Assembly: GCF_026151205.1 (NCBI RefSeq) | Contig: NC_087077.1 | Span: 14,608,983 to 14,672,982, forward strand | Length of the DNA stretch: 64,000 nucleotides | Reading direction: 5' to 3' | From: Bolinopsis microptera | Lineage: Eukaryota; Ctenophora; Tentaculata; Lobata; Bolinopsidae | Shown here: positions 1,895-61,985 of the stretch, one piece after another | Layout: the number at the start of each line of letters is the position of its first letter | Position numbering within the stretch: the first letter of the stretch is position 1 | Translations under genes and position numbers: made by a program | Notes under the pieces: model-generated | What the model was told of the DNA's origin: nothing | What the model saw: the letters and a program-made list of their open reading frames with translations, nothing else | Database searches by the model: none

Positions 1895-27343
<25,449 letters not shown>

Positions 27344-28967: not shown

Positions 28968-29680
28968 ATGCCGAATATGTGTCTGGAGGTGCAAGACACC
29001 AGTTACCTGCAACTGAAAGAAGAGCTGGGTGGGGCAGACTCACATTCCTATCTAGATGAAGTGTTAACAAAAAGCAGCACACAAAAAGCATTCATTAGGA
29101 GAGTCGAATTTCTTTGGGGACAAAATGATGCTCTCCAGGATTTATCCGACTAGAAAGATCATGAAATAAAGACTCTGCAAACATCTCAGAGAAATATTAC
29201 CACCATAAAGAACAAAGAGGTTAGAAGGAGTATCCTGGACCCCGAAATCCACCACTTTTCTGTACTTTCAGAGGTACCAATGTGGCAGGAAACCAGGGCT
29301 CATGCTGCCGCTGAGCTAAAGCAGTAGAGGGGATGGCGGCTTCTCTAGGATCTAACACGTCCTGAAGCAGACCAACACTATGTCCCAACGCACTGGTGTT
29401 GGGATGTCTGCCCCCGCGCCGGTGCCTGTCCGGGTCAATAAAGCAGTCAAGCACCATGTATGTTATGTTGAGCATTCTCAACCAACAAATGTGGGAACTC
29501 CCACGAAAGACCAAAACAGATCTAAAGAGACACTTAACAACATTGGAAAATAGACTTCAATTTGTTTATATAATTTATAAAGCGTATATTATTGCCCACG
29601 TTAAGGGGCCTGTTAATAATTTATTAAATTATTAGCTATTTTAGATTTAATAATAATTATAATAAAAATAATAATAATGC
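28968..29680 (+). repeat. Degenerate retroelement-like repeat, copy 1, with AAT-rich tail
   Basis: From about 29171 to 29660 this matches 48048-48520 in direct orientation. Shared stretches include GAGCATTCTCAACCA, GTGGGAACTCCCACGAAAGACC and GCCCACGTTAAGGGGCCTGTTAATAA (each shortened here where longer). Both copies end in an AATAAT tail, typical of non-LTR retroelement 3' ends. The preceding frame (28968-29345, one stop) reads as a charged helical protein, possibly an ORF1 remnant. Confidence 0.55.
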
Positions 29681-31518: not shown

Positions 31519-31523
31519 GTAAG
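31519..31523. repeat. Target-site duplication GTAAG, left
   Basis: GTAAG immediately precedes the left terminus TATAATGGCGCAGGAGG and is repeated immediately after the inverted right terminus at 47754-47758. Confidence 0.7.
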
Positions 31524-31561
31524 TATAATGGCGCAGGAGGGTCAACCTGAAAAGAACATTG

Positions 31562-31775
31562 CTTGACCCTCCTGCCCCACCGCATGGATCAGGAGGTTCA
31601 TTTCAGAAACAGTGCTTGACCCTCCTGCCCCACCACATGGATCAGGAGGTTCATTTCAGAAAAAACAGTGCTTGACCCTCCTGCCCCACCACATGGATTA
31701 CGGGGGTCACCCACAAAAACAGTGCTTGACCCTCCTGCCCCACCACATGGATTACGGGGGTCACCCACAAGACCA
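31562..31775. repeat. Subterminal minisatellite, left arm (4 units of about 54 bp)
   Basis: Units begin CTTGACCCTCCTGCCCCACC at 31562, 31615, 31671 and 31725. Two internal variants alternate (ATGGATCAGGAGGTTCATTT and ATGGATTACGGGGGTCACCC). Embedded CTCCTG...CAGGAG makes small hairpins and echoes the terminal motif. Confidence 0.9.
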
Positions 31776-31977
31776 TGTGCGCTGCACTTATTTCTACATC
31801 GCGCGCGATACGTGTGTGCGTGATTACATGAAATATTACCGCGCCCTACGCTAAGTAGACGAAAAGCGTGGTCGAAGAGCGAGAGTCGGTACAATAAATA
31901 AAACGAGAGTTGGTACATTTAACTGGCATTTTTTAACCGTGGTACAATCAGAATTGAATACAGCCGACACAGGATGA

Positions 31978-31999
31978 GGGGGGGGGGGGGGGGGGGGGG
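31978..31999 (+). repeat. Poly(G) tract, mirrored as poly(C) at 47227-47245
   Basis: 22 G in the left arm and 19 C in the right arm at corresponding positions. Copy-number difference is expected for a homopolymer and could be a sequencing artefact. Confidence 0.8.
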
Positions 32000-32539
32000 C
32001 AATGACTACTGATGGAGACTTTTGAGCACCAATGGGGACGAAAATCATAGGGACTGAAGGTCAAATCGCTGGTGAAATTTTCCATTTGTCCCCATAAGTA
32101 CCCAAAGTTTTGGCGAGTTTTATGTAGTTTTGATATTATCTTTTATTAAATGACTTCTAAAGGAGACTTTTGGGTACCAATGGGGGCTAAAAATCTTGGA
32201 GACTTGAGGTTAAATTGCTGGCGAAATTCTGCACTTGTCCCCAAAGTACCCAAAGTCATTGGCTCCCCCCCCCCTCCCCCGGGTGAGGTGACGGAGAAAA
32301 ATAAACTGAGCTCAAGGCTACATTTCCAGATATCCCGCCACGGCACCGTCGCTCATGCTGCAAAGTGTGTTGAGAGATGCCCACGTCATCACACGTAAAC
32401 TGTGTCACGAATACCTGAAATGCAGACGTGCAGAACAAACATAACTCTGATCTATATTTTTCATAAAACTTTCAGGATTTGCCAATGAGGGAAAAGACAG
32501 CACTGTCCGAGAAGCTAGAAATGCATGAATCATAGGTGA

Positions 32540-32738
32540 CATGGATAGGGGTAAGAAGTTTTTTAAAAACATGAAAATTGTGAAAGGAAAAGAAGTAGAA
32601 ATGAGAAAGGGTAGATTTAAAATGTTTGAGAATCGATTTTGTGCTGAAGAACTCCGTCCGCAGGACGGGCTTCCGGCTACTTATGATAATTCGAATAAAT
32701 TTGAGATTCAAACAAGCTACGAATACGAATGCTTATAG
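32540..32738 (+). CDS. Unrecognised basic open frame in left arm (mirrored at 46489-46687 minus)
   Basis: Begins MDRGKKFFKNMKIVKGKEVE and ends TSYEYECL; 65 residues, Lys-rich. An in-frame stretch just upstream (from about 32475, after a TTTCAG acceptor-like site) reads FANEGKDSTVREARNA before a stop. The two arm copies encode the same frame. No family recognised; the balance of codons and the acceptor make it a candidate exon of an element-borne gene. Confidence 0.3.
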
Positions 32739-32820
32739 CAGTGGCAAGCTCTTGTTTGCTGCGCATTGGCTGCAATGTATAACCGCAGTATGAACTGTCA
32801 AAATATTTGAATTTGCTTAC

Positions 32821-33057
32821 CTAGTGGCTTTGTTTGATAAAGCATACATACTTTATATACCGATAAATCAATAACTCCTTTTGATTCTTCGGTTTGAGAA
32901 TTGTGCGGTCACACATCTCTGCAATGTCTGAAAAGGTGGCAGGGAAGTATTGAAACTTACTTAACACTATATTTACAGTTAAACCTTGAACTACTATAAC
33001 TAGGGCAGTAGGAAACGCCAAAAAGTAGATCATCTGACTAAAACAACTTAACTTCAT
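32821..33057 (-). CDS. Unrecognised 78-residue frame with hydrophobic N-terminus (mirrored at 46170-46406 plus)
   Basis: Starts MKLSCFSQMIYFLAFPTALV, a plausible signal peptide or membrane segment, then a short polar region. In the right arm it is preceded by TTTTATTTCAG and its stop codon TAG is followed directly by GTAAGC, so it could be part of an internal exon read in another frame. Identical in both arms. Function unknown. Confidence 0.3.
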   Translation of the reverse strand: MKLSCFSQMIYFLAFPTALVIVVQGLTVNIVLSKFQYFPATFSDIAEMCDRTILKPKNQKELLIYRYIKYVCFIKQSH

Positions 33058-33771
33058 CCAAGAGTCTAGTTAGCAGCATTGTAGCGATAAGATACCACCA
33101 TAGTTTGAGCTGTCGACACTGAAATAAAACAAACAATTTACTTTTCACTACTGCAGGGGAATGCATGTAACATATAAAGAATAAAGATATAATATATTGT
33201 ATGTTTTTCATCGTGGCCTCAGGGGAGAAGGGCAGCTCGAAAAACCGAAAAAAGTCTAAAAAACCGTGTTGGAGCTGGTGAGTTAAAGCTACCGATCTCG
33301 ATCGTGAGAGTCAGATGATCAGATCGCATGTAACGTGAGTTTCGCCCGCCTGAATAAGGCAACATGAAATCATATTGCTGGTGACAGGTCTCGACCAAGA
33401 TGTAAAATAAAGATACCCCAAATTTGTTATTTTTAAGCCGATTCACATCGACCCAAGTCTCTGCTTTGACCCTAAATGCTCAAACTTCGTTAATAGATTG
33501 GAAAATCGTGTTATGCTTGTTACTAATAACTGTTGTTTGTGAGAGGACATCTCGATTTCCCGGATCAGAGGATCACACCAATGAGGGGTTGATTGTGCAT
33601 GTGTGAACTTGACTAAATTTTCAAATTGCCCGATTTTTTTTCAGTAGGTCACATTACTCGTGACGTGCAAATGTATCTTTTGTCTTTTAATAGGTCAAGC
33701 TCAGAGCTTTAAAGCTTTAAAGACTTCTCCGTGACAAAGACGGCCGACATATATCTTTACTCCAGGAAAAG

Positions 33772-34190
33772 TCAGAACTCTTTCCACACCACATTCTTAA
33801 ATGTACACGACAGCAGAACGACGATGTAGCCCCACGCCGCAGTAAACTTTAAATTTCTGACCCGGAACGAGCCCAGCAACTGTAGACAGCTGCGTGAGCT
33901 ATGTACGGTTAGCAGATTTAAGAGCTTATGCAATAAGCAGTCACCGTTCACTCTCATTTTTGACTTTTCTTCTTTTGAACAACAAATGTCCATTGAATGA
34001 TGCCAAGCTAAGCGATTATGATTAGAAAAGTACCGTGATTTACACTGATGGCTCATACAAGGACTTGTTGGACTTCGTGAATTTGGAGGACCTGCAGCTG
34101 TAATCAGTACTTCACTACCAGATGTGCGAGGCCGAGGTTCCCGTTTGACAACATTACAAGTGGACCACCCAGGCCGGGATGATCACGCGC
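33772..34190 (-). CDS. Unrecognised open frame of about 137 codons (mirrored at 45041-45455 plus)
   Basis: Opens after a TGA and reads ...REPRPRTSGSEVLITAAG, then MSHQCKSRYFSNHNRLAWHH, a Cys/His-containing stretch (DICCSKEEKS), and a hydrophobic C-terminal segment FTAAWGYIVVLLSCTF. Identical in both arms, which shows recent duplication rather than selection. No family recognised. Confidence 0.3.
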
Positions 34191-36019
34191 TAGTTGACAT
34201 GAGATCTGATTCTCCCGGGAAAATTGGCGAGATGACCGGTGTCCTGTCAGAGGTCACGGATACAAGGATACAAAAATATAAATATTTTATTGTACAATTA
34301 CAATAGTCGTATAAACTTGACAAATTCGCCTACCATCACGTGACCCTCGTCAACGAGCAAGTGAAAAATGTGTTCACAGCATTTATATTATACGGTAACT
34401 ACACCATAGATTGACAAGCTAAGCGTACAGAAAAACGTCCAACTCCTGACTATATAAAACTCCGGTATAATAGCGTTTTTGACGGAGCAATTTAATGGCC
34501 TGGAGTAGGAAACTTTGTTGACCGGAATAAATTTATCCGAAAGGCGAAAGATACATATGAGAGGCCATCATAAGATGGTACCAAAATATCTCTGTGAAAA
34601 GTCCTTTTTACTTTTTTAAGCGTCAAAAGTCGGTGCACTTACTTTATCCATCGAAAAAAGGCATCCCCTGGTGGCTCGTAAAGTATCGATTTTAGCTGTC
34701 TAGTAGCCATCTTCTGTGCTCTCTGGCAGTCTAAGAAGAAACATTATTATATACGACTCTATACAAATAATCTTATTATAAAACAGGATCATACATAGTT
34801 AATAGAACTCCATTAAGAAAACATCTTAACTACGTAATCTGTGCCTAGTACAACAGTTTCCAACACTTCCTACAGCTGGCAATATCCCTTATTTCATTTA
34901 ATCACTCAAATTTCTAAGTTCTAAGTTTCTATATTTAAGGTCATCAACAAGCATATTTGATATAAGTTTGTATTAGGTCTACCAACACGCCCTTTAAATT
35001 TACCACTACTATTAACACAAATTTCTCTTTGTGATGAAAAAGTTTAAAGAAGCTTTACAACTTAACTCAAACTAATGCTTCTGTCTGTCTGCTGCATTTG
35101 AATTTATTTCTAAATGATTCGCAGCTTTCGGTAGCTCCATGTTCAGCCCACCATGCCTGAAAAAATTTGGTTCACAATAACTTTGGTTCCCATAAATATT
35201 ATGGTTACCATAATATAAGTCACAAATTTTGTTAATTTCAAGTCAACAACAATATTAGTCGTATTTTTAAGACCATTTTTCCATATCATTTAATTTTTTT
35301 AAATTTATTCAGCTAGCTTTTTTGACTAAAATATTTTCGATCTGGGAAATTATTTAAAGACGAGTCAACATTACATACATCAATTACATAGCATCACATA
35401 CATTTACCTATAACACGCAGTAGCGACTTGTATAAATTTAACGATACTTAAATTCGTTAAATCATATATCATGTATATGCTCTGCTGAAATCTTAGTCTC
35501 CTTTAAAATAAGTCCTCCCATGAAATTTAGTTTACAACAATTTAGGCAATTGTTTGACTTAATTTATGGTATAATAGATTTTTCGTTTCCTGAGGAAAGG
35601 GAATTTCGGCGGATATAGTAACACCAGAAAATATTGGTTTATGTAAATTGAGTTTACGGTTGTTTATCAATGATTCGAGGGCACTGCAACGAGAATTAGA
35701 ACAATTAATCAAAAATTACTGCCTAAACATTTAATGACCAAAACCTAACGAGCTTAACCTCTGTCACTCTTTTTCGAGATTCAATATCATTTGACACAAC
35801 TCTATGATTAACTATATGATTTTTTAAAATAGGAAAACTAATCTGGTTGTATCCTAGGCAGAACTGATTATTATATACGTTAAGAACAGTGTCAGCTGGA
35901 ATATTCAAGTAAGGTCATTTGTGTGCTTTCTTTACAACAGAAACAAGGAATTGAAATATCATTGTAAACTAAAACTGACAAGGGTAATCATAACATAACA
36001 TTGTGCTCACAGTGTCACT

Positions 36020-36347
36020 CCATTCCTGAAAAAAGCCCATTTTCTTCCAATAAGGACAACAAATAGAGTATAAGATTGCTCTAACCGTGTTCAAATGTGT
36101 CAACAACGTAGCACCAAATGCATCAACATTAAGAGTCAACCTGTACGTGTACTACGGACTGAACAAGACTATTTCCTCCTAAATGTTCCTACTGTTTCAA
36201 ATTATAGTAAAACTGAGAGAAGCTTTAGTTACTGTGGACCCTTTGTTTGGAATCAGCTTCCTTAGCAATTGAGAACATTAACCGATATCGTCTTGTTTAA
36301 AAAGAGAATAAATACGCATCTCTTTGAAAAAGCATTCATATAAGTAC
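36020..36347 (+). pseudogene. LINE RT C-terminal remnant, left arm (mirrored at about 42285-42615 minus)
   Basis: Conceptual fragments QPVRVLRTEQDYFLLNVP, TERSFSYCGPFVWNQLP and LRTLTDIVLFKKRINTHLFE are the usual C-terminal end of CR1/jockey-group RT proteins. In-frame stops and frameshifts make it dead. Present in both arms, so it predates the palindrome. Confidence 0.75.
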
Positions 36348-36844
36348 ATATAATAACTTTATCATAAAACCCAAACTTCATAAAAATAATTCTAATGTAC
36401 ATATTCAATATTCATGAGTCGCTTTAGATGGCTTGAACTGAATCTTTACTTAGCTGTCATTAGTTTAGTGCTCAGTGTCAACAAGAATTGTCATTATATT
36501 TTCCCTGTGATAATATTCAATTTCAAGTCAATATATCATAGTTATTGAATGCCTATATATATCCTGAAGTTAGGACTAGATTTGACCTCCCATCTCCCTA
36601 ATTTTGAAAGAATTTATATGCCTCCTATCTGAAAATAGTTAATTATGAAGCTTTCATGGTATTCTTATTATCACTCAGCTTCATCACAGTACGCTCGTGG
36701 TCCATATATGCACTATGTAATTACTCATGGGTATCAACCAATTGAATAATAATGTGCGCGTTTGTTACTACTTGATCCCACACTCACAACTGTACGTTGC
36801 GGGAGGTCACACCCACGATGTAGAACTTGATTTCCTTCCGTGGT

Positions 36845-36891
36845 GGGGGGGGGGGGGGGGTTGGGGGGGGGGGGTGGGGGGGGGGGGGTGG
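36845..36891 (+). repeat. Interrupted poly(G) tract, left arm only
   Basis: Long G runs separated by TT and T; strong G-quadruplex potential. The corresponding right-arm stretch (about 41700-41900) does not carry the inverse tract. Confidence 0.8.
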
Positions 36892-37904
36892 TCCACAACA
36901 CCAAAACAACACCTCGGACGTATTGTCATTATATCTTTACACCTGACTTGGAAGTACTCACAATAAGCCGAGAACAGCCTAGCCGGTCCCACATCTAGTC
37001 TACACAGAATCATAGCTCAGTTACTCTAGTCACCAACTGTGACAGTAGTCTCTTGATGTCCATTGTCCCAACCGAATTCTGCATTTACAGTACATCTAGG
37101 TAAAGAAAAGATTAAGTGAATTGCATAATAGGGACCCCGAGCAAGATCAGTTAGTAATAAAAACACCTTAATTTATGAATAATACAATAGACTGAAATAT
37201 CTCTTCGAAATTTTTCTGTGACAAGTGGATCTTGAATCTTTGAATAGAGTTGGTGGTTACTGTCTGGTGACATTACACACTCACTTAATCTTCCTCTTGG
37301 TCCAAGGGATGTTTTAAGAAGGGCATTAATAACTTCCCTTACTGACATACTTACAACAAAATAGCTGCATTGCTTTGGGACTTGTCAGTAGAATGCCTGA
37401 AGATCGGTTACCCCAACTGTCTACTTGAATGACAACCCAAAAATAGGAAGAGATCAAGAGGCAGGTCTATAGGAAGAGCTTAAATGTAGTAGAAATGTTA
37501 CCTACCCTCCGAAGATGTATAAGTAAAGTAATAAAACAGCTCCCGCAGACTAATCTTTTTGGATGGAGATCTCGCTAGAGTAACATGTTACTTGGTTCAA
37601 TCCAATAACATATAAAATTAAAGAGTTTAAGAGTCCAAAATAGGAATTTAACACAAATATATATTAAATTCATTCACTGCAACAATCACTTCATAAAATC
37701 ATGTAGGAGTATTGATAAGATTGAGTTCCAGATCACCTATATATGCTGTGGATGCTAAAATCCTGACACCTCTATAACCCCTAAAAGAAACTATACATGT
37801 CATGGGTAATGGATATCATTAGTAGGTAGTTATTGCAAACAGAGTGCTACCAAGTGCCACGTCTTATGATTTTCTAGAAATCAGAAACAAAAAGTAAAAC
37901 TCTA

Positions 37905-38530
37905 ATCAAAATGCTGAGCAGGATGAAGCAAAGACTTGAAGAAGAACTAAGAGAACAACCAGAATGGCTTCAGACCTGGTTGCTCTACAACTTCGCACAT
38001 TCTTGTTCTGTGAAGAATTTATATAGGGTCCTAAAGGCCATGAGTGTGACAGGCACTATGGTGTTTATAGATTTTATAAAGCCTTTTGACAGTGTACATA
38101 AGGTTTGCTTATTAAGACCAGCCATGACTTATGTTGATAGCCTACGAGCTGACACGGGTCTCAAACGACACTGGAGAAATGGGCGGACTTATGGCGGATA
38201 GAGTTTTATGGAGACCGCGCATCAATACTCCGGACGCGAAGTAAGTCAGAGTTATTAAGATACTTAAAGCAAATGGTATACCAGAATAGATGGTATTACA
38301 GGGGTCTTCGAGGTCTGGTAGGATCAGGATTCGGAGTACTGCAAAGAGACACCTCATACTTGTTCATCATCGTGATTGACTATATCTTGACAGTGGCTAT
38401 AGATGATGACTCAGACTCTGGGTTCACTCTTAAGCCTGCACAGGGTGTAGATGGATTTGTGCTGAAAATATCGCATATGTCAAATTCTCAGATGATGGTG
38501 CCCTTATCACTGATATAATTGAATGGGGCA
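37905..38530 (+). pseudogene. RTE-type LINE RT remnant, left arm (mirrored at about 40500-41020 minus)
   Basis: Fragments EEELREQPEWLQTW, TMVFIDFIKPFDSVHK, and LFIIVIDYILTVAIDDDSDS followed by SGFTLKP correspond to RT motifs of RTE-like LINEs. The first has decayed from the usual FIDF-KAFDS. Interrupted by frameshifts and by the 134-bp insertion at 38118-38251. A C-terminal piece (TYVDSLRADTGL) follows at 38876-38990. Confidence 0.75.
38118..38251 (+). mobile_element. Left-arm-only truncated LINE 3' end with 9-bp target duplication
   Basis: Flanked by TTATTAAGA at 38109-38117 and 38252-38260. The right arm at 40790-40809 has the uninterrupted empty site with a single TTATTAAGA (inverse). The insert encodes TYVDSLRADTGL, the RTE C-terminal motif, also found at about 38876. 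Confidence 0.9.
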
Positions 38531-38870
38531 AAACTACTCCTGGACAGGCTATAGGAAGCAGCAAAAAGTGTGGGGTTAGTCTTGAACAACTCTAAAACAA
38601 ATCTCATGACTCTAAACACTACAGAGGAAAGTAGACTTTAAAGCTGTTCTGGAAACCAGCTGGAAAACGTACCTTGGGGGCATAGATATCAACAACTGAG
38701 AGAGACTTTAGAGAGACTTTAGAGAGACTTTTCAAGAGCAACTATGAAGATCCAAGAGCGTAGGATGCAACTAGCTTTGCCATATACACTGCCACCTTGA
38801 ACTAGTTGCTAAGTGTGGGGTAACTTTAATGAACCTAACCATGGTGTGCTGAGGCAGGGGAAGAACAGTC

Positions 38871-38995
38871 ATAACTTATGTTGATAGCCTAAGGGCTGAT
38901 ACAGGTTTGAGTAACACTGAGAAATCACGGAACTTATGGAGGATAGAAATCTATCGAGACAGTGCATCAATACTCGGACGCTGAAGCCTAAATAA
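38871..38995 (+). pseudogene. RTE LINE C-terminal fragment, left arm (mirrored at about 40020-40145 minus)
   Basis: Reads ITYVDSLRADTGLSNTE, then RNLWRIEIYRDSASILGR, the usual end of RTE-like RT proteins. Same family as the insertion at 38118. Confidence 0.7.
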
Positions 38996-39472
38996 GAGAA
39001 GTTTAAAAGTTCACAATCATAATTATTATTTAAAAATTGCTTCTAATAGCTACTGATAATCAGCTTGATAGTCGTCTTCCAGCCAGTTTATCAGAAATAA
39101 ATAAAATGCAGAACCTAACAAAGGACTAAAATAACTCCAAGATATATTTCATGAAAATTACTAAATTTGCATTGGCGCTCGATTCCAAAGAATTTTTGTT
39201 AATGATGCGTTGACAAAATGCGCGGCGCGCAAAAATTATCATTTGAAATTGTTTGTTGTTCAAACATATTTCATAAATAATCTGTAATATATAGTTCTAA
39301 TAGTGTATAAAAAAGAATAATCTCAAAATATAACACTAAACAGAGCAAAAAAACGAGGATCGCGCAAAAATTATATCTATTTTGACAATTTCCGCGATTT
39401 TAAATAGGAACCATTTAAATATATGAAAACAAAATACGCAAACCATTAAAATCTTGATCCATAAATTTTTAA

Positions 39473-39532
39473 TTGTAGAGTCCCGGTCAATAGTTTGCAA
39501 AAATAATTTTATATACGAAAAATATAAAGAAT
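39473..39532. other. Central spacer of the palindrome
   Basis: 60 bases of unique sequence between TTGATCCATAAATTTTTAA and its inverse. No gene. Such a short loop between 8-kb arms is expected to be unstable in cloning and replication. Confidence 0.8.
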
Positions 39533-42500
39533 TTAAAAATTTATGGATCAATAAATTTAGGGTTTGCGTAATTTGTTAATTACACTATATGTATAAACAT
39601 GGTTCCTGTTCAAAATCCCGGAAATTGTTAAAATAGATATGATTTTTGCGCGATCCTCGTTTTTGCTCTGTTTAGTGTTATATTTTGAGATTATTCTTTT
39701 TTATACACTATTAGAACTATATATTATAGATTATTTTATGAAATATGTTTGAACAACAAAACAATTTCAAATGATAATTTTTCCGCGCCGCGCATTTTGT
39801 CAACGCATCATTAACAAAAATCCTTTGGAATCGAGCGCCAATGCAAATTTAGTAATTTTCATGAAAAAATATCTTGGAGTTATTTTAGTCCTTTTGTTAG
39901 GTTCTGCATTTTATTTATTTCTGATAAACTGGCTGGAAGACGACTATCAAGCTGATTATCAGTAGCTATTAGAGGCAATTTTAAATAATAATTATGATTG
40001 TGAACTTTTAAACTTCTCTTAATTTAGGCTTCAGCGTCCGAGTATTGATGCACTGTCTCGATAGATTTCTATCCTCCATAAGTCCCGTGATTTCTCCAGT
40101 GTTACTCAAACCTGTATCAGCCCTTAGGCTATCAACATAAGTTATGACTGTTCTTCCCCTGCTCAGCACACCATGGTTAGGTTCATTAAGTACCCCACAC
40201 TTAGCAACTAGTTCAAGGTGGCAGTGTATATGGCAAAGCTAGTTGCATCCTACGCTCTTGGATCTTCATAGTTGCTCTTGAAAAGTCTCTCTAAAGTCTC
40301 TCTCAGTTGTTGATATCTATGCCCCCAAGGTACGTTTTCCAGCTGTTTCCAGAACAGCTTTAAAGTCTACTTTCCTCTGTAGTGTTTAGAGTCATGAGAT
40401 TTGTTTTAGAGTTGTTCAAGACTAACCCACACTTTTTGCTGCTTCCTATAGCCTGTCCAGGAGTAGGTTTTGCCCCATTCAATTATATCAGTGATAAGGG
40501 CACCATCATCTGAGAATTTGACATATGTGATATTTTCAGCACAAATCCTCTACACCCTGTGCAGGCTTAAGAGTGAACCCAGAGTCTGAGTCATCATCTA
40601 TAGCCACTGTCATGATATAGTCAATCACGATGATGAACAAGTATGAGGTGTCTCTTTGCAGTACTCCCGAATCCTGATCCTACCAGGACCTCGAAGACCC
40701 CTGTAATACCATCTGCAGTTGTGATTACTTAAGCCACTGTGTTTGTGTAGATCAATCGCACTATGTATTCTGGTATACCATTTGCTTTAAGTATCTTAAT
40801 AAGCAAACCTTTATGTACACTGTCAAAGGCTTTATTAAAATCTATAAACATCATAGTGGCCTTCACACTCTTTAGACCCTATATAATTCTTCACAGAACA
40901 AGAATGTGCGAAGTTGTAGAGCAACCAGGTCTGAAGCCATTCTGGTTGTCTCTTAGTTCTTCTTCAAGTCTTTGCTTCATCCTGCTCAGCATTTTGATTA
41001 GAGTTTTACTTTTTGTTTCTGATTTCTAGAAAATCATAATGGCCACTTGGTAGCACTCTGTTTGCAATAACTACCTACTAATGATATCCATTACCCATGA
41101 CATGTATAGTTTCTTTTAGGGGTTATAGAGGTGTCAGGATTTTAGCATCCACAGCAATATATAGGTGATCTGGAACTCAATCTTATCAATACTCCTACAT
41201 GATTTTATGAAGTGATTGTTGCAGTGAATGAATTTAATATATATTTGTGTTAAATTCCTATTTTGGACTCTTAAACTCTTTAATTTTATATGTATTGGAT
41301 TGAACCAAGTAACATGTTACTCTAGCGAGATCTCCATCCAAAAAGATTAGTCTGCGGGAGCTGTTTTATTACTTTACTTATACATCTTCGAGGGTAGGTA
41401 ACAGTTTCTACTACATTTAAGGCTCTTCCTATAGACCTGCCTCTTGATCTCTTCCTATTTTGGGGTTGTCATTAGAATTGTCATTCAGTATTATAACCTG
41501 ATCTTGCCCTCCGGGGGTCCCATCATAAGCACATTCAACTTAATCTTATTCTTATTCATTTCATTATTTCATTTCATTTCCTAGATGTTACCTGTAAATC
41601 GCAGAACTGGTTGACCATTGGACATTCAAGACTAACTGTCACAGCCATGGTGACCTTAGCTAAATGAGCTACTGTTCCTGTGTAGTACCGCCCAATGCTG
41701 ACATCCTATGGATACCTCCCTTGTGATAACTTCAAAGATCAGGTTGTATGATTTAATGAAATTGCCAAGGGGCGGGGGGGGGGGAAGACAAATTTTTCGA
41801 CCTAAATTTTATTCTCTAAACAAATCACTTCATTATTCAATTGGTGTCGTAATTAGGAAAGACTACAGATTATGTATTAAATACTATTAACAGAATAACC
41901 TGAAAGCCTCATATCAATAACTCATTTTCTCATAACTATAAGAGCTTCCAAAATTAGATCAGTCCTAAGATATGACTATCATATCCGACTCTAAATATCA
42001 CTTGCATATATAGTAGCATTCAATAACTATGATATATGTGACTGAATGGATCACAGCAACATTTCGCACATGGAGTCACACAGGACTATCTCTCTATGAC
42101 AATTCGGTTTCACTGAGCACTAAACTAATGGACATCGATAAAGGACTTTCACCAGTTGCAACGCGTGCCGAGATCCACTAGCTCTATACTCAGCGACATA
42201 ATATTGAAATAGATGTGACTCACGATCGCACGTGGTTAGATCTGTTTTTTAGAAGTTGGGTTTTATTAAAAGTATATGCTACTTATATGAATGCTTTTTT
42301 CAAAGAGATGCGTATTTATCTCTTTTTAAACAAGACGATATCGGTTAAGTTCTCAAATTGCTAAGGAAGCTGATTCCAAACAAAGGGTCCACAGTAACTA
42401 AAGCTTCTCTCAGTTTTACTATAATTTGAAACAGTAGGAACATTTAGGAGGAAATAGTCTTGTTCAGGTCCGTAGTACACGTACAGGTTGACTCTTAATG

Positions 42501-42767
42501 TTGATGCATTTGGTGATATAATTTGGAGCTACGTTGTTGACACATTTGAACACGGTTAGAGCAATCTTATACTCTATTTGTTGTCTTATTGGAAGAAAAT
42601 GGGCTTTTTTCAGGAATGGAGTGACACTGTGAGCACAATGTTATGTTATGATTACCCTTGTCAGTTTTAGTTTACAATGATATTTCAATTCCTTGTTTCT
42701 GTTGTAAAAGAAAGCACACAAATGACCTTACTTGAATATTCCAGCTGACACTGTTCTTAACGTATAT

Positions 42768-43351
42768 TAATTAATTAATTAAAATTGAAATTTAAAAACA
42801 CCACTATTAAGCGTACACTTTTACTCAGCAGTGTCACTACAACTAGTTTACAAAAATACTTTTAAAACTATATATCAAAAGCAAAATAAAGTTCTATGTA
42901 TAAATTCGTTCATAAAACTTCCAAAAAGCTAATATAATTTAGATAAGTCAAAGAGAGGGTTAAAATTATTAATAAAACATTTTTGCTACCTCAGTGTCAG
43001 ATAAAGTAAACAAATAAGTCTTCAGTGCGGACTTAAACGCCTCAACAGAATAACATTGTTTAACTGAGTCTGGTAGTGCATTAAAAACTCGTGGACCAAC
43101 CACACTAAAACTACGATCACCAAAACCCTTGGTTGAACGATAAGGGACTATGAGCCTAACAGTGTGTCCATGGTGAGCATACTTAAACATATCTTGAAGG
43201 TACAGTGGCGCTATTCCATTAATAGCCTTAAAAGATAGGAGACATATTTTAAAAATCACTCTTTTAGGTATATTAAGCCAGTGCAATTTATCAAGATCGT
43301 CGCCTAGGTGATCAAATTTATATTTTCCAGTTACTGCTTTTGCACAGGCAT
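42768..43351 (-). mobile_element. Right-arm-only 5'-truncated CR1/L2-like LINE insertion
   Basis: About 584 bp carrying an RT C-terminal frame (42969-43286: MHWLNIPKRVIFKICLLSFK ... FGDRSFSVVGPRVFNALPDS) and a 3' tail of ATTA repeats at 42766-42782. Target duplication TATAT at 42763-42767 and 43352-43356; the left arm has the empty site near 35866-35887. Confidence 0.88.
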
Positions 43352-44493
43352 TATATAATAATCAGTTCTGCTAGGATACAACCAGATTAGTTTTCCTATT
43401 TTAAAAAATCATATAGTTAATCCATAGAGTTGTGTCAAATGATATTGAATCTCCGAAAAAGAGTGACAGAGGTTAAGCTCGTTAGGTTTTGGTCATTAAA
43501 TGTTTAGGCAGTAATTTTTGATTAATTGTTCTAATTCTCGTTGCAGTGCCCTCGAATCATTGATAAACAACGTAAACTCAATTTACATAAACCAATATTT
43601 TCTGGTGTTACTATATCCGCCGAAATTCCCTTTCCTCAGGAACGAAAAATCTATTATACCATAAATTAAGTCAAACAATTGCCTATGGGAGGACAATTTC
43701 ATGGGAGGACTTATTTTAAAGGAGACTAAGATTTCAGCAGAGCATATACATGATATATGATTTAACGAATTTAAGTATCGTTAAATTTATACAAGTCGCT
43801 ACTGCGTGTTATAGGTAAATGTATGTGATGCTATGTAATTGATGTATGTAATGTTGACTCGTCTTTAAATAATTTCCCAGATCGAAAATATTTTAGTCAA
43901 AAAAGCTAGCTGAATAAATTTAAAAAAATTAAATGATATGGAAAAATGGTCTTAAAAATACGACTAATATTGTTGTTGACTTGAAATTAACAAAATTTGT
44001 GACTTATATTATGGTAACCATAATATTTATGGGAACCAAAGTTATTGTGAACCAAATTTTTTCAGGCATGGTGGGCTGAACATGGAGCTACCGAAAGCTG
44101 CGAATCATTTAGAAATAAACTCAAATGCAGCAGACAGACAGAAGCATTAGTTTGAGTTAAGTTGTAAAGCTTCTTTAAACTTTTTCATCACAAAGAGAAA
44201 TTTGTGTTAAATAGTAGTGGTAAATTTAAAGGGCGTGTTGGTAGACCTAATACAAACTTATATCAAATATGCTTGTTGATGACCTTAAATATAGAAACTT
44301 AGAACTTAGAAATTTGAGTGATTTAAATGAAATAAGGGATATTGCTAGCTGTAGGAAGTGTTGGAAACTGTTGTACTAGGCACAGATTACGTAGTTAAGA
44401 TGTTTTCTTAATGGAGTTCTATTAACTATGTATGATCCTGTTTTATAATAAGATTATTTGTATAGAGTCGTATATAATAATGTTTCTTCTTAG

Positions 44494-44582
44494 ACTGCCA
44501 GAGAGCACAGAAGATGGCTACTAGACAGCTAAAATCGATACTTTACGAGCCACCAGGGGATGCCTTTTTTTCGATGGATAAA
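44494..44582 (+). CDS. Candidate first coding exon in right arm (mirrored at 34643-34730 minus)
   Basis: Acceptor TTTCTTCTTAG, then ATG at 44514 reading MATRQLKSILYEPPGDAFF and SMDK up to a strong donor GTAAGT. In the left arm the T-run is one base shorter (6 instead of 7), which changes the frame just before the donor. The next exon could not be assigned with confidence. No homology recognised. Confidence 0.35.
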
Positions 44583-47460
44583 GTAAGTGCACCGACTTTT
44601 GACGCTTAAAAAAGTAAAAAGGACTTTTCACAGAGATATTTTGGTACCATCTTATGATGGCCTCTCATATGTATCTTTCGCCTTTCGGATAAATTTATTC
44701 CGGTCAACAAAGTTTCCTACTCCAGGCCATTAAATTGCTCCGTCAAAAACGCTATTATACCGGAGTTTTATTATAGTCAGGAGTTGGACGTTTTTCTGTA
44801 CGCTTAGCTTGTCAATCTATGGTGTAGTTACCGTATAATATAAATGCTGTGAACACATTTTTCACTTGCTCGTTGACGAGGGTCACGTGATGGTAGGCGA
44901 ATTTGTCAAGTTTATACGACTATTGTAATTGTACAATAAAATATTTATATTTTTGTATCCTTGTATCCGTGACCTCTGACAGGACACCGGTCATCTCGCC
45001 CAATTTTCCCGGGAGAATCAGATCTCATGTCAACTAGCGCGTGATCATCCCGGCCTGGGTGGTCCACTTGTAATGTTGTCAAACGGGAACCTCGGCCTCG
45101 CACATCTGGTAGTGAAGTACTGATTACAGCTGCAGGTCCTCCAAATTCACGAAGTCCAACAAGTCCTTGTATGAGCCATCAGTGTAAATCACGGTACTTT
45201 TCTAATCATAATCGCTTAGCTTGGCATCATTCAATGGACATTTGTTGTTCAAAAGAAGAAAAGTCAAAAATGAGAGTGAACGGTGACTGCTTATTGCATA
45301 AGCTCTTAAATCTGCTAACCGTACATAGCTCACGCAGCTGTCTACAGTTGCTGGGCTCGTTCCGGGTCAGAAATTTAAAGTTTACTGCGGCGTGGGGCTA
45401 CATCGTCGTTCTGCTGTCGTGTACATTTAAGAATGTGGTGTGGAAAGAGTTCTGACTTTTCCTGGAGTAAAGATATATGTCGGCCCGTCTTTGTCACGGA
45501 GAAGTCTTTAAAGCTTTAAAGCTCTGAGCTTGACCTATTAAAAGACAAAAGATACATTTGCACGTCACGAGTAATGTGACCTACTGAAAAAAAATCGGGC
45601 AATTTGAAAATTTAGTCAAGTTCACACATGCACAATCAACCCCTCATTGGTGTGATCCTCTGATCCGGGAAATCGAGATGTCCTCTCACAAACAACAGTT
45701 ATTAGTAACAAGCATAACACGATTTTCCAATCTATTAACGAAGTTTGAGCATTTAGGGTCAAAGCAGAGACTTGGGTCGATGTGAATCGGCTTAAAAATA
45801 ACAAATTTGGGGTATCTTTATTTTACATCTTGGTCGAGACCTGTCACCAGCAATATGATTTCATGTTGCCTTATTCAGGCGGGCGAAACTCACGTTACAT
45901 GCGATCTGATCATCTGACTCTCACGATCGAGATCGGTAGCTTTAACTCACCAGCTCCAACACGGTTTTTAAGACTTTTTTCGGTTTTTCGAGCTGCCCTT
46001 CTCCCTGAGGCCACGATGAAAAACATACAATATATTATATCTTTATTCTTTATATGTTACATGCATTCCCCTGCAGTAGTGAAAAGTAAATTGTTTGTTT
46101 TATTTCAGTGTCGACAGCTCAAACTATGGTGGTATCTTATCGCTACAATGCTGCTAACTAGACTCTTGGATGAAGTTAAGTTGTTTTAGTCAGATGATCT
46201 ACTTTTTGGCGTTTCCTACTGCCCTAGTTATAGTAGTTCAAGGTTTAACTGTAAATATAGTGTTAAGTAAGTTTCAATACTTCCCTGCCACCTTTTCAGA
46301 CATTGCAGAGATGTGTGACCGCACAATTCTCAAACCGAAGAATCAAAAGGAGTTATTGATTTATCGGTATATAAAGTATGTATGCTTTATCAAACAAAGC
46401 CACTAGGTAAGCAAATTCAAATATTTTGACAGTTCATACTGCGGTTATACATTGCAGCCAATGCGCAGCAAACAAGAGCTTGCCACTGCTATAAGCATTC
46501 GTATTCGTAGCTTGTTTGAATCTCAAATTTATTCGAATTATCATAAGTAGCCGGAAGCCCGTCCTGCGGACGGAGTTCTTCAGCACAAAATCGATTCTCA
46601 AACATTTTAAATCTACCCTTTCTCATTTCTACTTCTTTTCCTTTCACAATTTTCATGTTTTTAAAAAACTTCTTACCCCTATCCATGTCACCTATGATTC
46701 ATGCATTTCTAGCTTCTCGGACAGTGCTGTCTTTTCCCTCATTGGCAAATCCTGAAAGTTTTATGAAAAATATAGATCAGAGTTATGTTTGTTCTGCACG
46801 TCTGCATTTCAGGTATTCGTGACACAGTTTACGTGTGATGACGTGGGCATCTCTCAACACACTTTGCAGCATGAGCGACGGTGCCGTGGCGGGATATCTG
46901 GAAATGTAGCCTTGAGCTCAGTTTATTTTTCTCCGTCACCTCACCCGGGGGAGGGGGGGGGAGCCAATGACTTTGGGTACTTTGGGGACAAGTGCAGAAT
47001 TTCGCCAGCAATTTAACCTCAAGTCTCCAAGATTTTTAGCCCCCATTGGTACCCAAAAGTCTCCTTTAGAAGTCATTTAATAAAAGATAATATCAAAACT
47101 ACATAAAACTCGCCAAAACTTTGGGTACTTATGGGGACAAATGGAAAATTTCACCAGCGATTTGACCTTCAGTCCCTATGATTTTCGTCCCCATTGGTGC
47201 TCAAAAGTCTCCATCAGTAGTCATTGCCCCCCCCCCCCCCCCCCCTCATCCTGTGTCGGCTGTATTCAATTCTGATTGTACCACGGTTAAAAAATGCCAG
47301 TTAAATGTACCAACTCTCGTTTTATTTATTGTACCGACTCTCGCTCTTCGACCACGCTTTTCGTCTACTTGGCGTAGGGCGCGGTAATATTTCATGTAAT
47401 CACGCACACACGTATCGCGCGCGATGTAGAAATAAGTGCAGCGCACATGGTCTTGTGGGT

Positions 47461-47718
47461 GACCCCCGTAATCCATGTGGTGGGGCAGGAGGGTCAAGCA
47501 CCGTTTTTGTGGGTGACCCCCGTAATCCATGTGGTGGGGCAGGAGGGTCAAGCACTGTTTTTGTGGGTGACCCCCGTAATCCATGTGGTGGGGCAGGAGG
47601 GTCAAGCACTGTTTTTTCTGAAATGAACCTCCTGATCCATGTGGTGGGGCAGGAGGGTCAAGCACTGTTTCTGAAATGAACCTCCTGATCCATGCGGTGG
47701 GGCAGGAGGGTCAAGCAA
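47461..47718. repeat. Subterminal minisatellite, right arm (5 units of about 54 bp)
   Basis: Inverse counterpart of the left array with one extra unit, marked by five occurrences of GGGGCAGGAGGGTCAAGCA. The 54-bp size is a multiple of three, so open frames running through it show an 18-residue repeat; these are not taken as genes. Confidence 0.9.
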
Positions 47719-47753
47719 TGTTCTTTTCAGGTTGACCCTCCTGCGCCATTATA

Positions 47754-47758
47754 GTAAG
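47754..47758. repeat. Target-site duplication GTAAG, right
   Basis: Matches 31519-31523 in direct orientation directly outside the right terminus. Confidence 0.7.
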
Positions 47759-48047
47759 TGATCAATGCCAATGTGCATATTCAATATTACAGTGCACAGT
47801 GTGCAATTTTTGTGTGATGAAGGCTGTTTTTACGGAGTACAAATCGGTCTACATAGAAAAGTACAAAAAAGATACTACGAGCGGGCGCCAAAATACCGTA
47901 ACTTCTTTTTATTAATAAACAGGGCTTATATTTTTGAACATTAAATGTTAAAGGGGCGCTAACAAGGATTCAGCAAGTGGATGTTAACTTCACACCACTG
48001 CAGCCATTACAAAGTATTTTGCAACTTGTATACAATTGTACTGTTGA

Positions 48048-48520
48048 CATCTCAGAGAAATGATAACACCTTAAAGAATAAAGAGGGAGGATCCTGGACC
48101 CCGAAATCCACCACCTTTCTGTACTTTCAGAGGTACACGTACCAATGTGGCAGGAAACCAGGGCTCATGCTGCCGCTGAGCTAAAACAGTAGAGGAGATG
48201 GCGGATTCTCTGGGATCTAACACATCCTGAAACTTACCAACACTATGTCCCAACGCACTGGTGTGGGGATGTCTGCCCCCGGTGCCTGCCCGGGTTAATA
48301 AAGCAGTCAAGCATCATGAATGTTATGTTGAGCATTCTCAACCAGCAGATGTGGGAACTCCCACGAAAGACCGAAACAGATCTAAAGAGACAATTAGCAA
48401 AATCGGAAAATAGACTTGAACTTGTTTTATAATTTATAATAAAGCGTATGTCATTGCCCACGTTAAGGGGCCTGTTAATAATTAATTAAATTATTAGCTA
48501 TTTTAGATTTAATAATAATG
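48048..48520 (+). repeat. Degenerate retroelement-like repeat, copy 2
   Basis: Second copy of the 29171-29660 sequence, same orientation, ending in AATAATAAT. Differs by small indels, so neither copy has a shared intact frame. Lies about 290 bp outside the palindrome. Confidence 0.75.
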
Positions 48521-48683: not shown

Positions 48684-48755
48684 GCCTCCGTGGCCTAATG
48701 GCTAAGGCATCGGCCTTCTAAGCCGGGGATTGCGGGTTCGAGCCCCGCCGGGGGT
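48684..48755 (+). tRNA. tRNA-Arg (anticodon TCT)
   Basis: 72 bases forming a full cloverleaf: acceptor GCCTCCG/CGGGGGT (with G-T wobbles), D arm GCC...GGC, anticodon arm TCGGC-CTTCTAA-GCCGG with TCT at the anticodon position, five-base variable loop GGATT, T arm GCGGG-TTCGAGC-CCCGC. Box A TGGCCTAATGG and box B GGTTCGAGCCC fit the Pol III consensus, and a T-rich terminator (ATTTTT) follows at 48757. No intron. It could also be the head of a SINE, but nothing downstream shows a SINE body. Confidence 0.92.
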
Positions 48756-49792
48756 TATTTTTGGCATTTCATTCACAGCATGTTTGCTCCTTGTGAGTGG
48801 GCTTGGGAATTCTAGAATCTTTTATAGCGGTAGCATTGAGCATTGTAGATGATAACTCAATGGTTTGGTACCCATTCAAAAATTGAAAACCTTTAAATAT
48901 TATATAGATCTCTTCCAGTGATGGGTGGCATGAGGTGCTGATCTCCTTTTCAGTAACCCGAAGCCACTTTGTGCATGTCACTACACTAGACTGGCCTATT
49001 TACAAGAAAGACAATAAAGAATGCATTGAAAATTATCGGCCTGTATCAATATTACCTTTATTTGGAAAGATCTTCGAGAAGGTTATTTATAAACGCCTCT
49101 ATAATTTCTTCACATCTAAAGGTGTACTAACAGACTCACAGTTTGGATTTAGGAAAGGCCATTCTACCACCCATGCTCTACACAAATCTATAGACTCCGT
49201 TACTAAGTCTCTGGCAAGCAATAAACATGTCCTAGGGATATTCATTGACTTGAGCAAAGCCTTCGACACCCTTGATCACGATATTCTTTTATGCAAATTA
49301 AATTCCTACGGTATTAGGGGCACAGCACTTACCTTACTAAAAAGCTATTTGACTAACAGAAAGCAGTATGTTATGTATAACGATGTACCATCAGAAACAA
49401 TGGACGTAAAATTTGGAGTACCACAAGGGTCAATTCTAGGGCCGTTACTCTTCCTATTGTATATGAACGATATAGTAAACTGCTTTTCAGACAGTGAGGT
49501 GAAATTTGTACTTTATGCTGATGACACTAATATCTTCATATCAGGACCATCTAGAGAAGCAACATACAAAAAAGCCAACTTAGTACTTAAACATGTCTCG
49601 ATTTACATGAAATGTAATCTACTTCATATCAACATGTCCAAATGCTGCTACATACATTTTAAACCTGCCTCTGAATATGATGACACCTGTGCACGGACCA
49701 GACCATTTGCTATCCTGCTAGATGAATCTAGATCAATATTCATCAATGGTAAGGTTATTACTAAAGTCAAGGATACCAAATTCTTAGGTGTT

Positions 49793-56925: not shown

Positions 56926-57580
56926 AACATCCAGAATATGTCCTTTGTTGTGAGTTGGATCTCTCACGTATTGATGCAGTCCATAGCTGGCCAATACTTC
57001 AGTCAGTTTGGCCGTGTTTCTTGATTTATGATCATCCAAATGAATATTAAGATCACCACAGATTAAAAACTTCTTGTATTTCATGAATATGTTCCCAATA
57101 AACTCATCCAAATCTTCAAAAAATACATCAGTCAATGACCCTGGTCGGTAAACACAAGCACAGAGGACAGTATCACCCGATGAGTCTCGAAATTTGCCTA
57201 AAACTGCTTCAAACGTATCTCCACACTTATCAAACACAGGAGTAAGGTTCAAATCACTTGAATTGTAAATAATTCCAACTCCTCCGCCTCTGCATTTAGC
57301 GGAGTCTTTCCTGATGTAGTGAATCAAGTTATAGCCATAAGACTTGATGGTAGCAGTAACATCATTCTTCATGCTGGTGAGCCAAGTCTCAGTGACAAAA
57401 AGGACAGAGATTCCTTGGTCGATTATAGATTCCATGATTGGTTGAATCTTATTATTGAGAGATCTCACATTCCAGCAACAGCCAAGAATCTCCGCCGGAG
57501 AGGATTTCAGACCACTGCTTACAAGTTTTTTGAACTGTAGTAATTGATAGTTTTGCGGAGATGCTGCTGTTCAGCAACAT
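56890..57580 (-). pseudogene. CR1 LINE ORF2, apurinic-like endonuclease part
   Basis: Frame opens after a TGA near 57580 and reads LKSSPAEILGCCWNVRSLNN, then LFVTETWL, CRGGGVGIIY, ACVYRPGS, ICGDLNIHLDDHK and GHILDVVISSH, the ordered motifs of the LINE exonuclease-endonuclease-phosphatase fold. No ATG precedes the first motif; the first is at 57468, so a non-AUG or reinitiation start is likely. The frame ends in TAG at 56890 because of a one-base shift near 56920. The next frame supplies SQSTVDSHTSEMFPNCDHFP, completing the final (S)DH motif. Confidence 0.88.
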
Positions 57581-58919: not shown

Positions 58920-59136
58920 TGCGCACTTCTTTTACAAAGTGAAACAGTGCAGATCAGCAGAGTCAGTAGAGAATCAAAATTGAGTTCGGGGTCCTCAAAT
59001 TATTTGTTATATAGTAGTGTTGAAAGTATTAAAACTAAAGTATATTCATTTTGCACCCAGAGAAAGATGTGATCACAGAGGTAGTTTCGATATTATGTTC
59101 ATGACAAGGTATGGGGCTGCTGCAAGTTATATTTTG

Positions 59137-61587: not shown

Positions 61588-61867
61588 CGTGACGTGTTCA
61601 ATGTCGTTGGTGAGTATATTGTCATGCAGGAATGTTGGTGAATGTTTGTGGAATGAGTTGGTAATGAGATGAGCGGAAAGAATCCCAATGAAAGAAACAA
61701 ATTTTCAAATTTTTGAGTTGTGGGATTTGTTCTCTTTAGAAGGTCAAAGTTGTAGTCTCCCAAAATTATAGGGAATTTCGCTGGATTGTACAACTTTCGT
61801 CTTGGTAGATTCCAAACACAAGGAAATTTTTCCTTTGGTTGGTAATATACTCAATGATGGAAGTATA

Positions 61868-61985
61868 GTGTATTGGCTATGCCCCGCTCACTAGTTTAGC
61901 TCTTTCTAGTCCCCTGCTACACGGTATGTAAACAGGGATTGGCTAGTTAGAGGCGGTCCGTGTAGGCCTTACACTGTGCTTTCAG
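61868..61985. mobile_element. Possible small insertion in the LINE endonuclease frame
   Basis: About 118 bases with no endonuclease coding sense lie between KDIKSM and the FPIILGDYN motif. Ends AGTATAGTGTATTGGCTA and, inverted, AGCACAGTGTAAGGCCTA share 13 of 18 positions, which hints at a decayed MITE. No target duplication defined. Confidence 0.4.

What the first reader, a model, noticed from the sequence alone, without database searches (positions are those of the whole stretch)
31519..47758. 16.2-kb near-perfect palindrome with inverted termini and 5-bp target duplication
Both ends read TATAATGGCGCAGGAGGG inward and GTAAG flanks both sides, so the whole 16 kb appears to have inserted as a unit. 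Arms of about 8 kb around a 60-base spacer far exceed the terminal repeats of known cut-and-paste families. There is no recognisable transposase, yet the arms carry unrecognised open frames with good splice signals. It could be a giant foldback element, a mobilised inverted dimer, or a new family whose transposase I cannot recognise.
Basis: partly seen in the sequence, partly recalled or inferred. Interest (0 to 1): 0.88.

Follow-up and report, generated by a model that had tools for sequence, protein, structure and literature searches.

The report
Giant palindromic jumping DNA element
A 16-kilobase stretch whose two halves mirror each other is one of fifteen two-ended copies of a giant palindromic transposable element scattered through one genome (likely an animal's), most of them inserted cleanly as whole units and likely moved by a cutting enzyme made elsewhere, although palindromes this long are usually thought to be unstable.

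Summary
Window 31524-47753 has inverted ends TATAATGGCGCAGGAGGG and a 5-bp duplication GTAAG. It is one of 15 two-ended copies found in this 264.65-Mb genome. Nine have perfect 5-bp duplications, one more has its duplication beside an eroded end, one matches 4 of 5, four have none. For four copies the joined flanks exist uninterrupted elsewhere (40 places, 90-100%); a fifth sits in a 34-bp tandem repeat whose neighbouring units show the empty site.

An assembly-made inversion is very unlikely: in all 10 copies read in full one inner arm, and only one, carries the same indel plus linked substitutions, so one palindromic ancestor spread as a unit. The outer 4.3 kb is 99.5% or more identical between arms in 7 of 10 copies, with signs of copying between arms. 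"Near-perfect" fits only the outer arms; overall the window's arms are 93.1% identical.

No transposase was found in what was read. Best reading: a young, non-autonomous giant foldback transposon moved in trans by an unidentified enzyme with a 5-bp stagger. Architecture and arm-to-arm transfer are known from Galileo (longest copy I read of: 9.0 kb); size, copy number and duplication length make this a new variant, not a new kind.

The parts
31519..31523 (.). left copy of the 5-bp target-site duplication, GTAAG
47754..47758 (.). right copy of the 5-bp target-site duplication, GTAAG
31524..31770 (+). left end: TATAATGGCGCAGGAGGG terminus and about four 54-bp subterminal tandem repeats; motif CAGGAGGGTCAA or its complement at 31534, 31563, 31616, 31672, 31726 (transposase binding inferred)
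47453..47753 (-). right end: same terminus and about five 54-bp repeats; motif at 47486, 47540, 47594, 47650, 47703, 47732; no exact copy in the rest of the window
31524..35877 (+). outer left arm, 99.91% identical to the best arm of other copies (4.35 kb compared)
43352..47753 (-). outer right arm, 99.51% identical to the left arm
35878..38287 (+). inner left arm, type B (lacks the marker indel)
40715..42775 (-). inner right arm, type A (carries the marker indel)
38288..40714 (.). central palindrome (94.1%) around a short spacer near 39480-39560
42776..43351 (-). insertion of about 580 bp in the right arm only, partly LINE-derived (38% to the window's RT frame 54665-56998, E 2e-17); also in one arm of copy C4:11.1M
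40624..40956 (-). decayed reverse-transcriptase remnant (weak match)
   Evidence: tblastn, (E 5e-5 and 1.5e-4)
35250..35277 (+). site empty here that carries a 494-bp TA-flanked MITE in both arms of three other copies and one arm of a fourth
43945..43972 (-). mirror of the MITE site in the right arm, also empty
34447..34485 (+). 39-bp stretch found duplicated (40 bp) around a 1475-bp FLYWCH-containing insert in copies C6:2.1M (both arms) and C5:12.7M (one arm); no insert here

Best explanation
Window 31524-47753 is one of 15 two-ended copies of a giant foldback transposon, a palindrome with 8-kb arms that is predicted to lack its own enzyme and likely jumps as a whole when a transposase made elsewhere binds its repeated ends and pastes it in with a 5-bp stagger. 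Shown: same ends, 5-bp duplications in most copies, empty sites for five other copies, recent spread (8 of the 10 copies read have an outer arm at least 99.9% identical to an arm of another copy) and a shared arm marker in each of the 10, which points to one palindromic ancestor. Shown as a pattern, mechanism inferred: arms exchange sequence within a copy, most simply by gene conversion between folded or sister arms, which would keep the outer arms alike while the inner arms stay different. Inferred: the 54-bp subterminal repeats with the CAGGAGGGTCAA motif are the enzyme's binding sites; the transposase is a DDE-type enzyme supplied in trans; the arms grew by recruiting fragments of other elements, as described for Galileo.
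For: Termini and duplication: (9 of 15 perfect; C6:2.1M is a tenth with GTAAG on both sides but 8 bp lost from its left end). Copies: 29 of 49 terminus places belong to the 15 pairs; 15 inverted mid-arm pairs among 37 matches, 14 of them in the 15 two-ended copies; by my count 18 central palindromes among 57 matches. Empty sites: uninterrupted joined flanks for four copies (11, 16, 12 and 1 places; 90-100% identity, one of them 100% over 191 bases), the C3 copy inside a 34-bp tandem repeat. One ancestor: the gap at arm positions 6594-6765 (replaced by about 79 bp) is in exactly one arm of each of 10 copies, 12 substitution or gap sites fixed between those arms and the others (26 allowing one exception per group), in two short stretches near 6.5 and 7.9 kb from the ends; 500 random swaps of arms gave at most 1. 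Arm exchange: MITE at one site in both arms of 3 copies, one arm of 1, neither arm of 11 inverted pairs; FLYWCH insert in both arms of 2 copies and one arm of 1 (C6:19.97M placed by spacing only); outer-arm alleles agree within copies in 298 of 316 comparisons (0.943) against 0.737 for shuffled partners, 0 of 2000 shuffles reaching it. Binding-site-like repeats: 11 motif copies in the element, all within about 270 bp of the ends, 0 in the rest of the window.
Against: No transposase or autonomous copy was found, but five two-ended copies were read only at their ends, plus 2.9 kb of one, and the genome was not searched for transposase families. Four of 15 copies lack a matching duplication (C4:11.1M, C2:14.5M, C5:12.7M, C12:4.7M): either recombinant copies, as reported for Galileo, or assembly switches between near-identical arms. 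One arm in each of C9:8.8M and C11:17.5M carries 68 and 65 substitutions and 64 and 55 deletions with few transitions while its partner is nearly clean, which looks like uncorrected read error. Homogenisation is incomplete: in W 22 outer-arm variants are private to one arm and 1 to both, and several insertions are in one arm only. A second indel block (5087-5905) separates the arms in only 8 of 10 copies. Inner arms agree little within copies (0.533 against 0.475; 13 of 2000 shuffles reach it). Five single full-length mid-arm matches were not resolved; single-arm copies could be among them.
Confidence: 0.82

Rival explanations
1. Assembly-made palindrome: the assembler or a foldback read inverted a single 8-kb arm.
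For: No reads were available. One arm of two copies looks like uncorrected sequence, and four copies have mismatched flanks.
Against: Arms differ by an indel and linked sites shared across 10 loci; both flanks of most copies carry matching duplications; joined flanks of four copies exist intact elsewhere.
Confidence: 0.04
2. Each copy became a palindrome on its own, by an inverted duplication of a shorter element after it had landed.
For: Arms within a copy share alleles and insertions. Five single mid-arm matches (C146, C1:12.87M, C9:2.10M, C7:17.13M, C11:12.05M) were not resolved; only C7:17.1M was looked into, and it is palindromic with another interior.
Against: The same arm marker occurs in exactly one arm of each of the 10 copies read, and central palindromes are present at 18 places by my count.
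Confidence: 0.06
3. The element is moved by a virus-like integrase (Polinton/Maverick or Ginger2/TDD type) and is a gutted relative of such an element.
For: Integrases of this kind can give 5-bp duplications (TDD-4 and TDD-5, PMC2836005 passages); size is in the Polinton range (recalled). Another giant foldback in this genome has AG ends and a 6-bp duplication, which is Polinton-like (recalled).
Against: Ends here are TATAATGG, not TG or AG; no integrase, polymerase or capsid match appeared in the frames tested.
Confidence: 0.12
4. It is a Mutator-family (MULE) foldback; the FLYWCH insert in some arms is a remnant of its own transposase.
For: [quoted passage not shown] A 295-aa FLYWCH frame (E 5.4e-9) lies in both arms of two copies and one arm of a third, and a related remnant sits in both arms of another foldback.
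Against: MULE duplications are 8-11 bp (PMC6446971 passage); here they are 5 bp. The FLYWCH insert was found in 3 copies only and is flanked by a 40-bp duplication, so it looks like a later acquisition. FLYWCH-related stretches are common: 140 matches, a lower bound.
Confidence: 0.12

Closest known systems
Galileo (P superfamily, Drosophila), copy 112 of D. willistoni
   Same: Two very long inverted repeats and little else: 9021 bp with repeats of 4246 and 4680 bp, no transposase segment, flanked by identical duplications; tandem repeats inside the repeats; another element inserted in one repeat and later part of both; chimeric Galileo copies with mismatched flanks occur in D. mojavensis (PMC4168063 and PMC3573991, passages).
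   Different: Galileo duplications are 7 bp, here 5 bp; the ends differ from Galileo's as recalled; arms here are 8 kb; copy 112 is a single long copy, here 15 two-ended copies share the ends and at least 14 the palindrome; no P transposase found.
Tetris (foldback, D. virilis)
   Same: Terminal part plus internal tandem repeats inside long inverted repeats, no coding capacity, missing autonomous partner (PMC4079207, passages).
   Different: Duplications of 8-10 bp; much smaller as recalled.
Drosophila FB and sea-urchin TU foldback elements
   Same: Inverted repeats built on short tandem repeats (recalled; foldbacks of these hosts are named in a PMC4079207 passage).
   Different: Smaller, with other ends and duplications (recalled, not tested).
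Ginger2 / TDD-4, TDD-5
   Same: 5-bp duplication in TDD-4 and TDD-5 (PMC2836005, passages).
   Different: Ends follow TGTNR; repeats of about 50-300 bp; integrase present; the animal Ginger2 elements give 4 bp.

Membership tests
Foldback-type transposon (architecture, not a lineage) | Very long inverted repeats making up most of the element | tested here: met
Foldback-type transposon (architecture, not a lineage) | Tandem repeats inside the terminal inverted repeats | tested here: met
   54-bp repeats at both ends
Foldback-type transposon (architecture, not a lineage) | Mobile as a unit with target-site duplication | tested here: met
Mutator / MULE | Target-site duplication of 8-11 bp | tested here: not met
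   5 bp in 9 of 15 copies; empty sites agree; definition from PMC6446971 passage
Mutator / MULE | MULE transposase | tested here: inconclusive
   FLYWCH fragment in 3 copies only; five copies unread inside
P superfamily / Galileo | Target-site duplication of 7-8 bp | tested here: not met
   5 bp; definition from PMC4168063 passages
P superfamily / Galileo | P/THAP transposase | tested here: inconclusive
   no match in the frames tested; not searched genome-wide
Polinton / Maverick | AG termini and 6-bp duplication (recalled) | tested here: not met
   TATAATGG termini and 5 bp
Polinton / Maverick | Protein-primed DNA polymerase, integrase and capsid genes | tested here: inconclusive
   none in the frames tested; five copies unread inside
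Ginger2 / TDD | TGTNR termini | tested here: not met
   TATAATGG; definition PMC2836005 passages
Transib | 5-bp duplication with CAC-type termini (recalled) | tested here: not met
   the 5-bp duplication is met but the termini are TATAATGG

The most novel reading that the evidence does not exclude
A lineage of transposons whose unit of movement is itself a giant palindrome of 15 kb or more, mobilised by an undescribed transposase superfamily (5-bp stagger, TATAATGG ends) in a host that tolerates such palindromes; the arms act as traps that capture and mirror pieces of other mobile elements, so any read-through transcript would be a long hairpin RNA able to silence them. At least one more giant foldback with unrelated ends in the same genome suggests host-level permissiveness rather than one freak element.
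Probability: 0.15. Interest if true: 0.85.

Novelty: new variant of a known kind. Interest (0 to 1): 0.55.

Why it matters
Closely spaced long inverted repeats cause breaks and instability in the systems where they have been studied (general knowledge; starts of abstracts listed). Here a palindrome with 8-kb arms has multiplied to 15 two-ended copies, many of them nearly identical, in what is probably an animal genome. That makes two questions testable: how this host replicates such palindromes, and how foldback arms are kept alike, since the arm markers and the MITE and FLYWCH insertions record which parts were copied across. It also warns that assemblies may scramble such elements.

Tried and rejected
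Rejected: assembly artefact (shared arm markers, duplications, empty sites); independent palindrome formation per copy; MULE, Galileo, Polinton, Ginger2 or Transib membership (each fails a tested feature). Considered and dropped: single termini as autonomous copies. Of the 49 terminus places, 29 belong to the 15 pairs and 20 do not. Ten loci holding 11 of those 20 were read at 1 kb each: nine loci hold a truncated end embedded in another repeat with nearly the same flank (one with two ends 511 bp apart), and one (L059) is an end with only about 100 bp of matching sequence. Of the other nine places, six were fetched with up to 1.5 kb on each side and looked at for their ends only, and three were not read. 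C7:17.1M looked at first like a non-palindromic, possibly autonomous copy, because 2.9 kb of its middle has no match to the 10 copies read; a genome search with that piece showed matches in inverted orientation within the same element and at C10:5605476-5610591, so it too is palindromic with a different interior. No frame over 96 aa was found in those 2.9 kb.

The host was not identified by a test: size (264.65 Mb) and about 13 large contigs, as far as seen, fit Bolinopsis microptera (265 Mb; 13 chromosomes shown for it in a figure legend; PMC11797021 passages), but that record lists 346 scaffolds and ours has 232, so this stays a guess.
Full report
WHAT IS THERE. The window is G000:C6:14608983-14672982 of a 264.65-Mb genome in 232 contigs. 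The element is 31524-47753 (16,230 bp) between copies of GTAAG. Both ends read TATAATGGCGCAGGAGGGTCAACC inward, followed by four to five 54-bp repeats. The motif CAGGAGGGTCAA occurs 11 times in the element, all within about 270 bp of its ends, and not in the rest of the window. The arms are 99.8-100% identical over the first 4 kb, then a mosaic, 93.07% over 7494 aligned columns in all with 1162 gap columns.

A FAMILY. A search with the first 401 bp gave 43 matches (40 of 51 candidates scored, so a lower bound) and the 22-bp terminus 49. Fifteen pairs face each other 15-32 kb apart. A mid-arm query gave 37 matches: 15 inverted pairs (14 in two-ended copies, the fifteenth at C6:19.97M where only one terminus was found), with one arm split in two, five single matches and one of 38 bp. 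An inner-arm query gave 57 matches, with central palindromes at 18 places by my count (+ and - matches within about 1.5 kb).

CLEAN INSERTION. Of 15 two-ended copies, nine have perfect 5-bp duplications: W GTAAG, C7:13.3M CAAAC, C11:17.5M GTCTT, C10:4.2M CATAG, C2:9.0M GATAC, C3:0.4M GTTAC, C6:12.4M ATTGT, C1:13.0M GTAGC, C7:17.1M CTGTT. C6:2.1M has GTAAG on both sides but its left end lacks 8 bp. C9:8.8M matches in 4 of 5. C4:11.1M, C2:14.5M, C5:12.7M and C12:4.7M have none. Joined flanks of five copies were searched in the genome: 40 of 298 candidates were scored and all 40 run across a junction, 11 for C7, 16 for C11, 12 for C10 and 1 for C2:9.0M, at 90-100% identity. W's own flanks did not reach the list, so says nothing about an empty site for W. 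The C3 copy lies in a 34-bp tandem repeat, and joining its flanks restores the repeat in phase.

ONE PALINDROMIC ANCESTOR. The 20 arms of 10 copies were projected on W's left arm. A gap at arm positions 6594-6765, with about 79 bp in its place, is in exactly one arm (called A) of each copy; a neighbouring block (5087-5905) follows the same split in 8 of 10. With A and B set by the first indel, 12 positions are fixed between A and B arms (26 with one exception per group), all beyond 6.4 kb from the ends; 500 random swaps gave at most 1. They lie in two short stretches (6507-6538 and 7849-7930, plus one at 6421), the first close to the indel, so they are few events and not fully independent of it. 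In five copies A is on the left and in five on the right.

ARM-TO-ARM COPYING. A 494-bp MITE flanked by TA sits at one exact site: in both arms of C6:2.1M, C9:8.8M and C7:13.3M, in one arm of C5, and in neither arm of 11 inverted pairs, two of which (C6:19.97M, C6:3.97M) are outside the 15 (the right arm of C7 is seen only; C2:9.0M and C7:17.1M were not scored). A 1475-bp FLYWCH-containing insert flanked by a 40-bp duplication is in both arms of C6:2.1M and in one arm of C5, and in both arms of C6:19.97M, placed there by spacing only. In C5 the two inserts are on opposite arms. Alleles at 32 informative outer-arm sites agree within copies in 298 of 316 comparisons against a shuffled mean of 0.737. 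Against: many variants and several insertions are private to one arm, and the inner arms barely agree beyond chance. So copying looks real but partial, strongest in the outer arm.

AGE. In the outer 4.35 kb, gaps left out, 8 of 10 copies have an arm at least 99.9% identical to an arm of another copy (C10 99.61, C2:9.0M 99.15); arms within a copy are 99.5% or more identical in 7 of 10 (C11 98.48, C9 98.41, C2:9.0M 96.63). The first two of these three are the copies with a noisy arm. Spread was recent.

CODING. The 11 frames of at least 150 aa in the 10 copies are three in terminal repeats, three FLYWCH frames, and five others. Pfam found FLYWCH, and PHD and a 2OG-Fe(II) oxygenase domain in one LINE-like frame of C7; the same oxygenase domain is in the window at 62779-63999. 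The C5 frame at 7489-8391 had no Pfam match but is like the window's RT frames (77 and 42%). The other three (C10, C7, C2:9.0M) had no match at E 0.1 (of the C10 frame 310 of 344 aa were tested). Ten shorter frames of W had none above cut-off. tblastn with the window's reverse-transcriptase frames hits inner-arm pieces of W (33-55% identity, best E 2e-17). No transposase was seen; genome-wide transposase families were not searched.

HOW IT LIKELY WORKS. An enzyme encoded elsewhere would bind the subterminal repeats, pair the ends, cut, and insert with a 5-bp stagger; the palindromic body is passenger. Repair between arms would keep the outer arms alike. These steps are inferred. Copies without duplications could be recombinants; chimeric Galileo copies with mismatched flanks are described (PMC3573991 passages), or they could be assembly switches.

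RELATION TO WHAT IS KNOWN. Galileo copy 112 (9021 bp, repeats of 4246 and 4680 bp) and the transfer of insertions between repeats (PMC4168063 passages) are close precedents; Tetris (PMC4079207 passages) shares the missing transposase and tandem repeats. The 5-bp duplication does not fit MULE (8-11 bp, PMC6446971 passage) or Galileo (7 bp). [quoted passage not shown] A review of giant transposons (PMC6431247, passages) mentions foldbacks only as flanks of a composite element in the passages seen. In nine paper searches I saw no title or abstract start reporting this family or foldbacks in ctenophores; some lists were capped (15 of 133, 10 of 57, 10 of 25), and most subscription papers are not held.

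MORE OF THE KIND. Another foldback, with no sequence match to W, at C8:7140643-7149864 has 3.48-kb arms at 99.6%, ends AGCCCCCTCCCGGG and a 6-bp duplication ATAAAA; its FLYWCH remnant is one of seven inverted pairs about 6-9 kb apart in the list, of which only this one was read. C7:17.1M and C10:5.6M share a different palindromic interior.

Noticed in passing
L061/L062 (G000:C8:7140643-7149864): Another giant foldback: 9.2 kb, arms 3.48 kb at 99.6%, ends AGCCCCCTCCCGGG, 6-bp duplication ATAAAA, a 2.2-kb core of AG-rich repeats, FLYWCH-related remnants in both arms.
   Followed up: partly
L070 (G000:C7:17127400-17130300) and G000:C10:5605476-5610591: A different palindromic interior; in C7 it is framed by ends 86% like W's over about 400 bp, with a mid-arm piece 99% like W's on one side only and a CTGTT duplication.
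   Followed up: partly
L045 (one arm of C9:8.8M) and L041 (one arm of C11:17.5M): 68 and 65 substitutions and 64 and 55 deletions in the first 4.35 kb of one arm, few transitions, partner arm nearly clean: read-error-like sequence on one side of a palindrome.
   Followed up: partly
L051-L058, L060: A truncated W-type end embedded in another dispersed repeat (flank cctaaagaagattgatcaatggcag, two bases shorter in L057), tandem at 511-bp spacing in L054.
   Followed up: partly
L042 (about 3243-4718) and L035 (about 3177-4652): A 1475-bp FLYWCH insert flanked by a 40-bp direct duplication, unusually long for a target-site duplication.
   Followed up: partly
window 54665-63999 and L038:1-1119: LINE-like reverse-transcriptase and endonuclease frames beside frames with a 2OG-Fe(II) oxygenase match and sub-threshold PHD-like and GDSL-lipase matches; PHD plus the oxygenase recur in the insert of copy C7:13.3M.
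   Followed up: no
window 29181-29657 and 48047-48519: An 89% identical direct repeat on either side of the element, not symmetrical to the insertion point.
   Followed up: no
window 48684-48756: A tRNA-Arg(tct) prediction about 0.9 kb from the right end.
   Followed up: no
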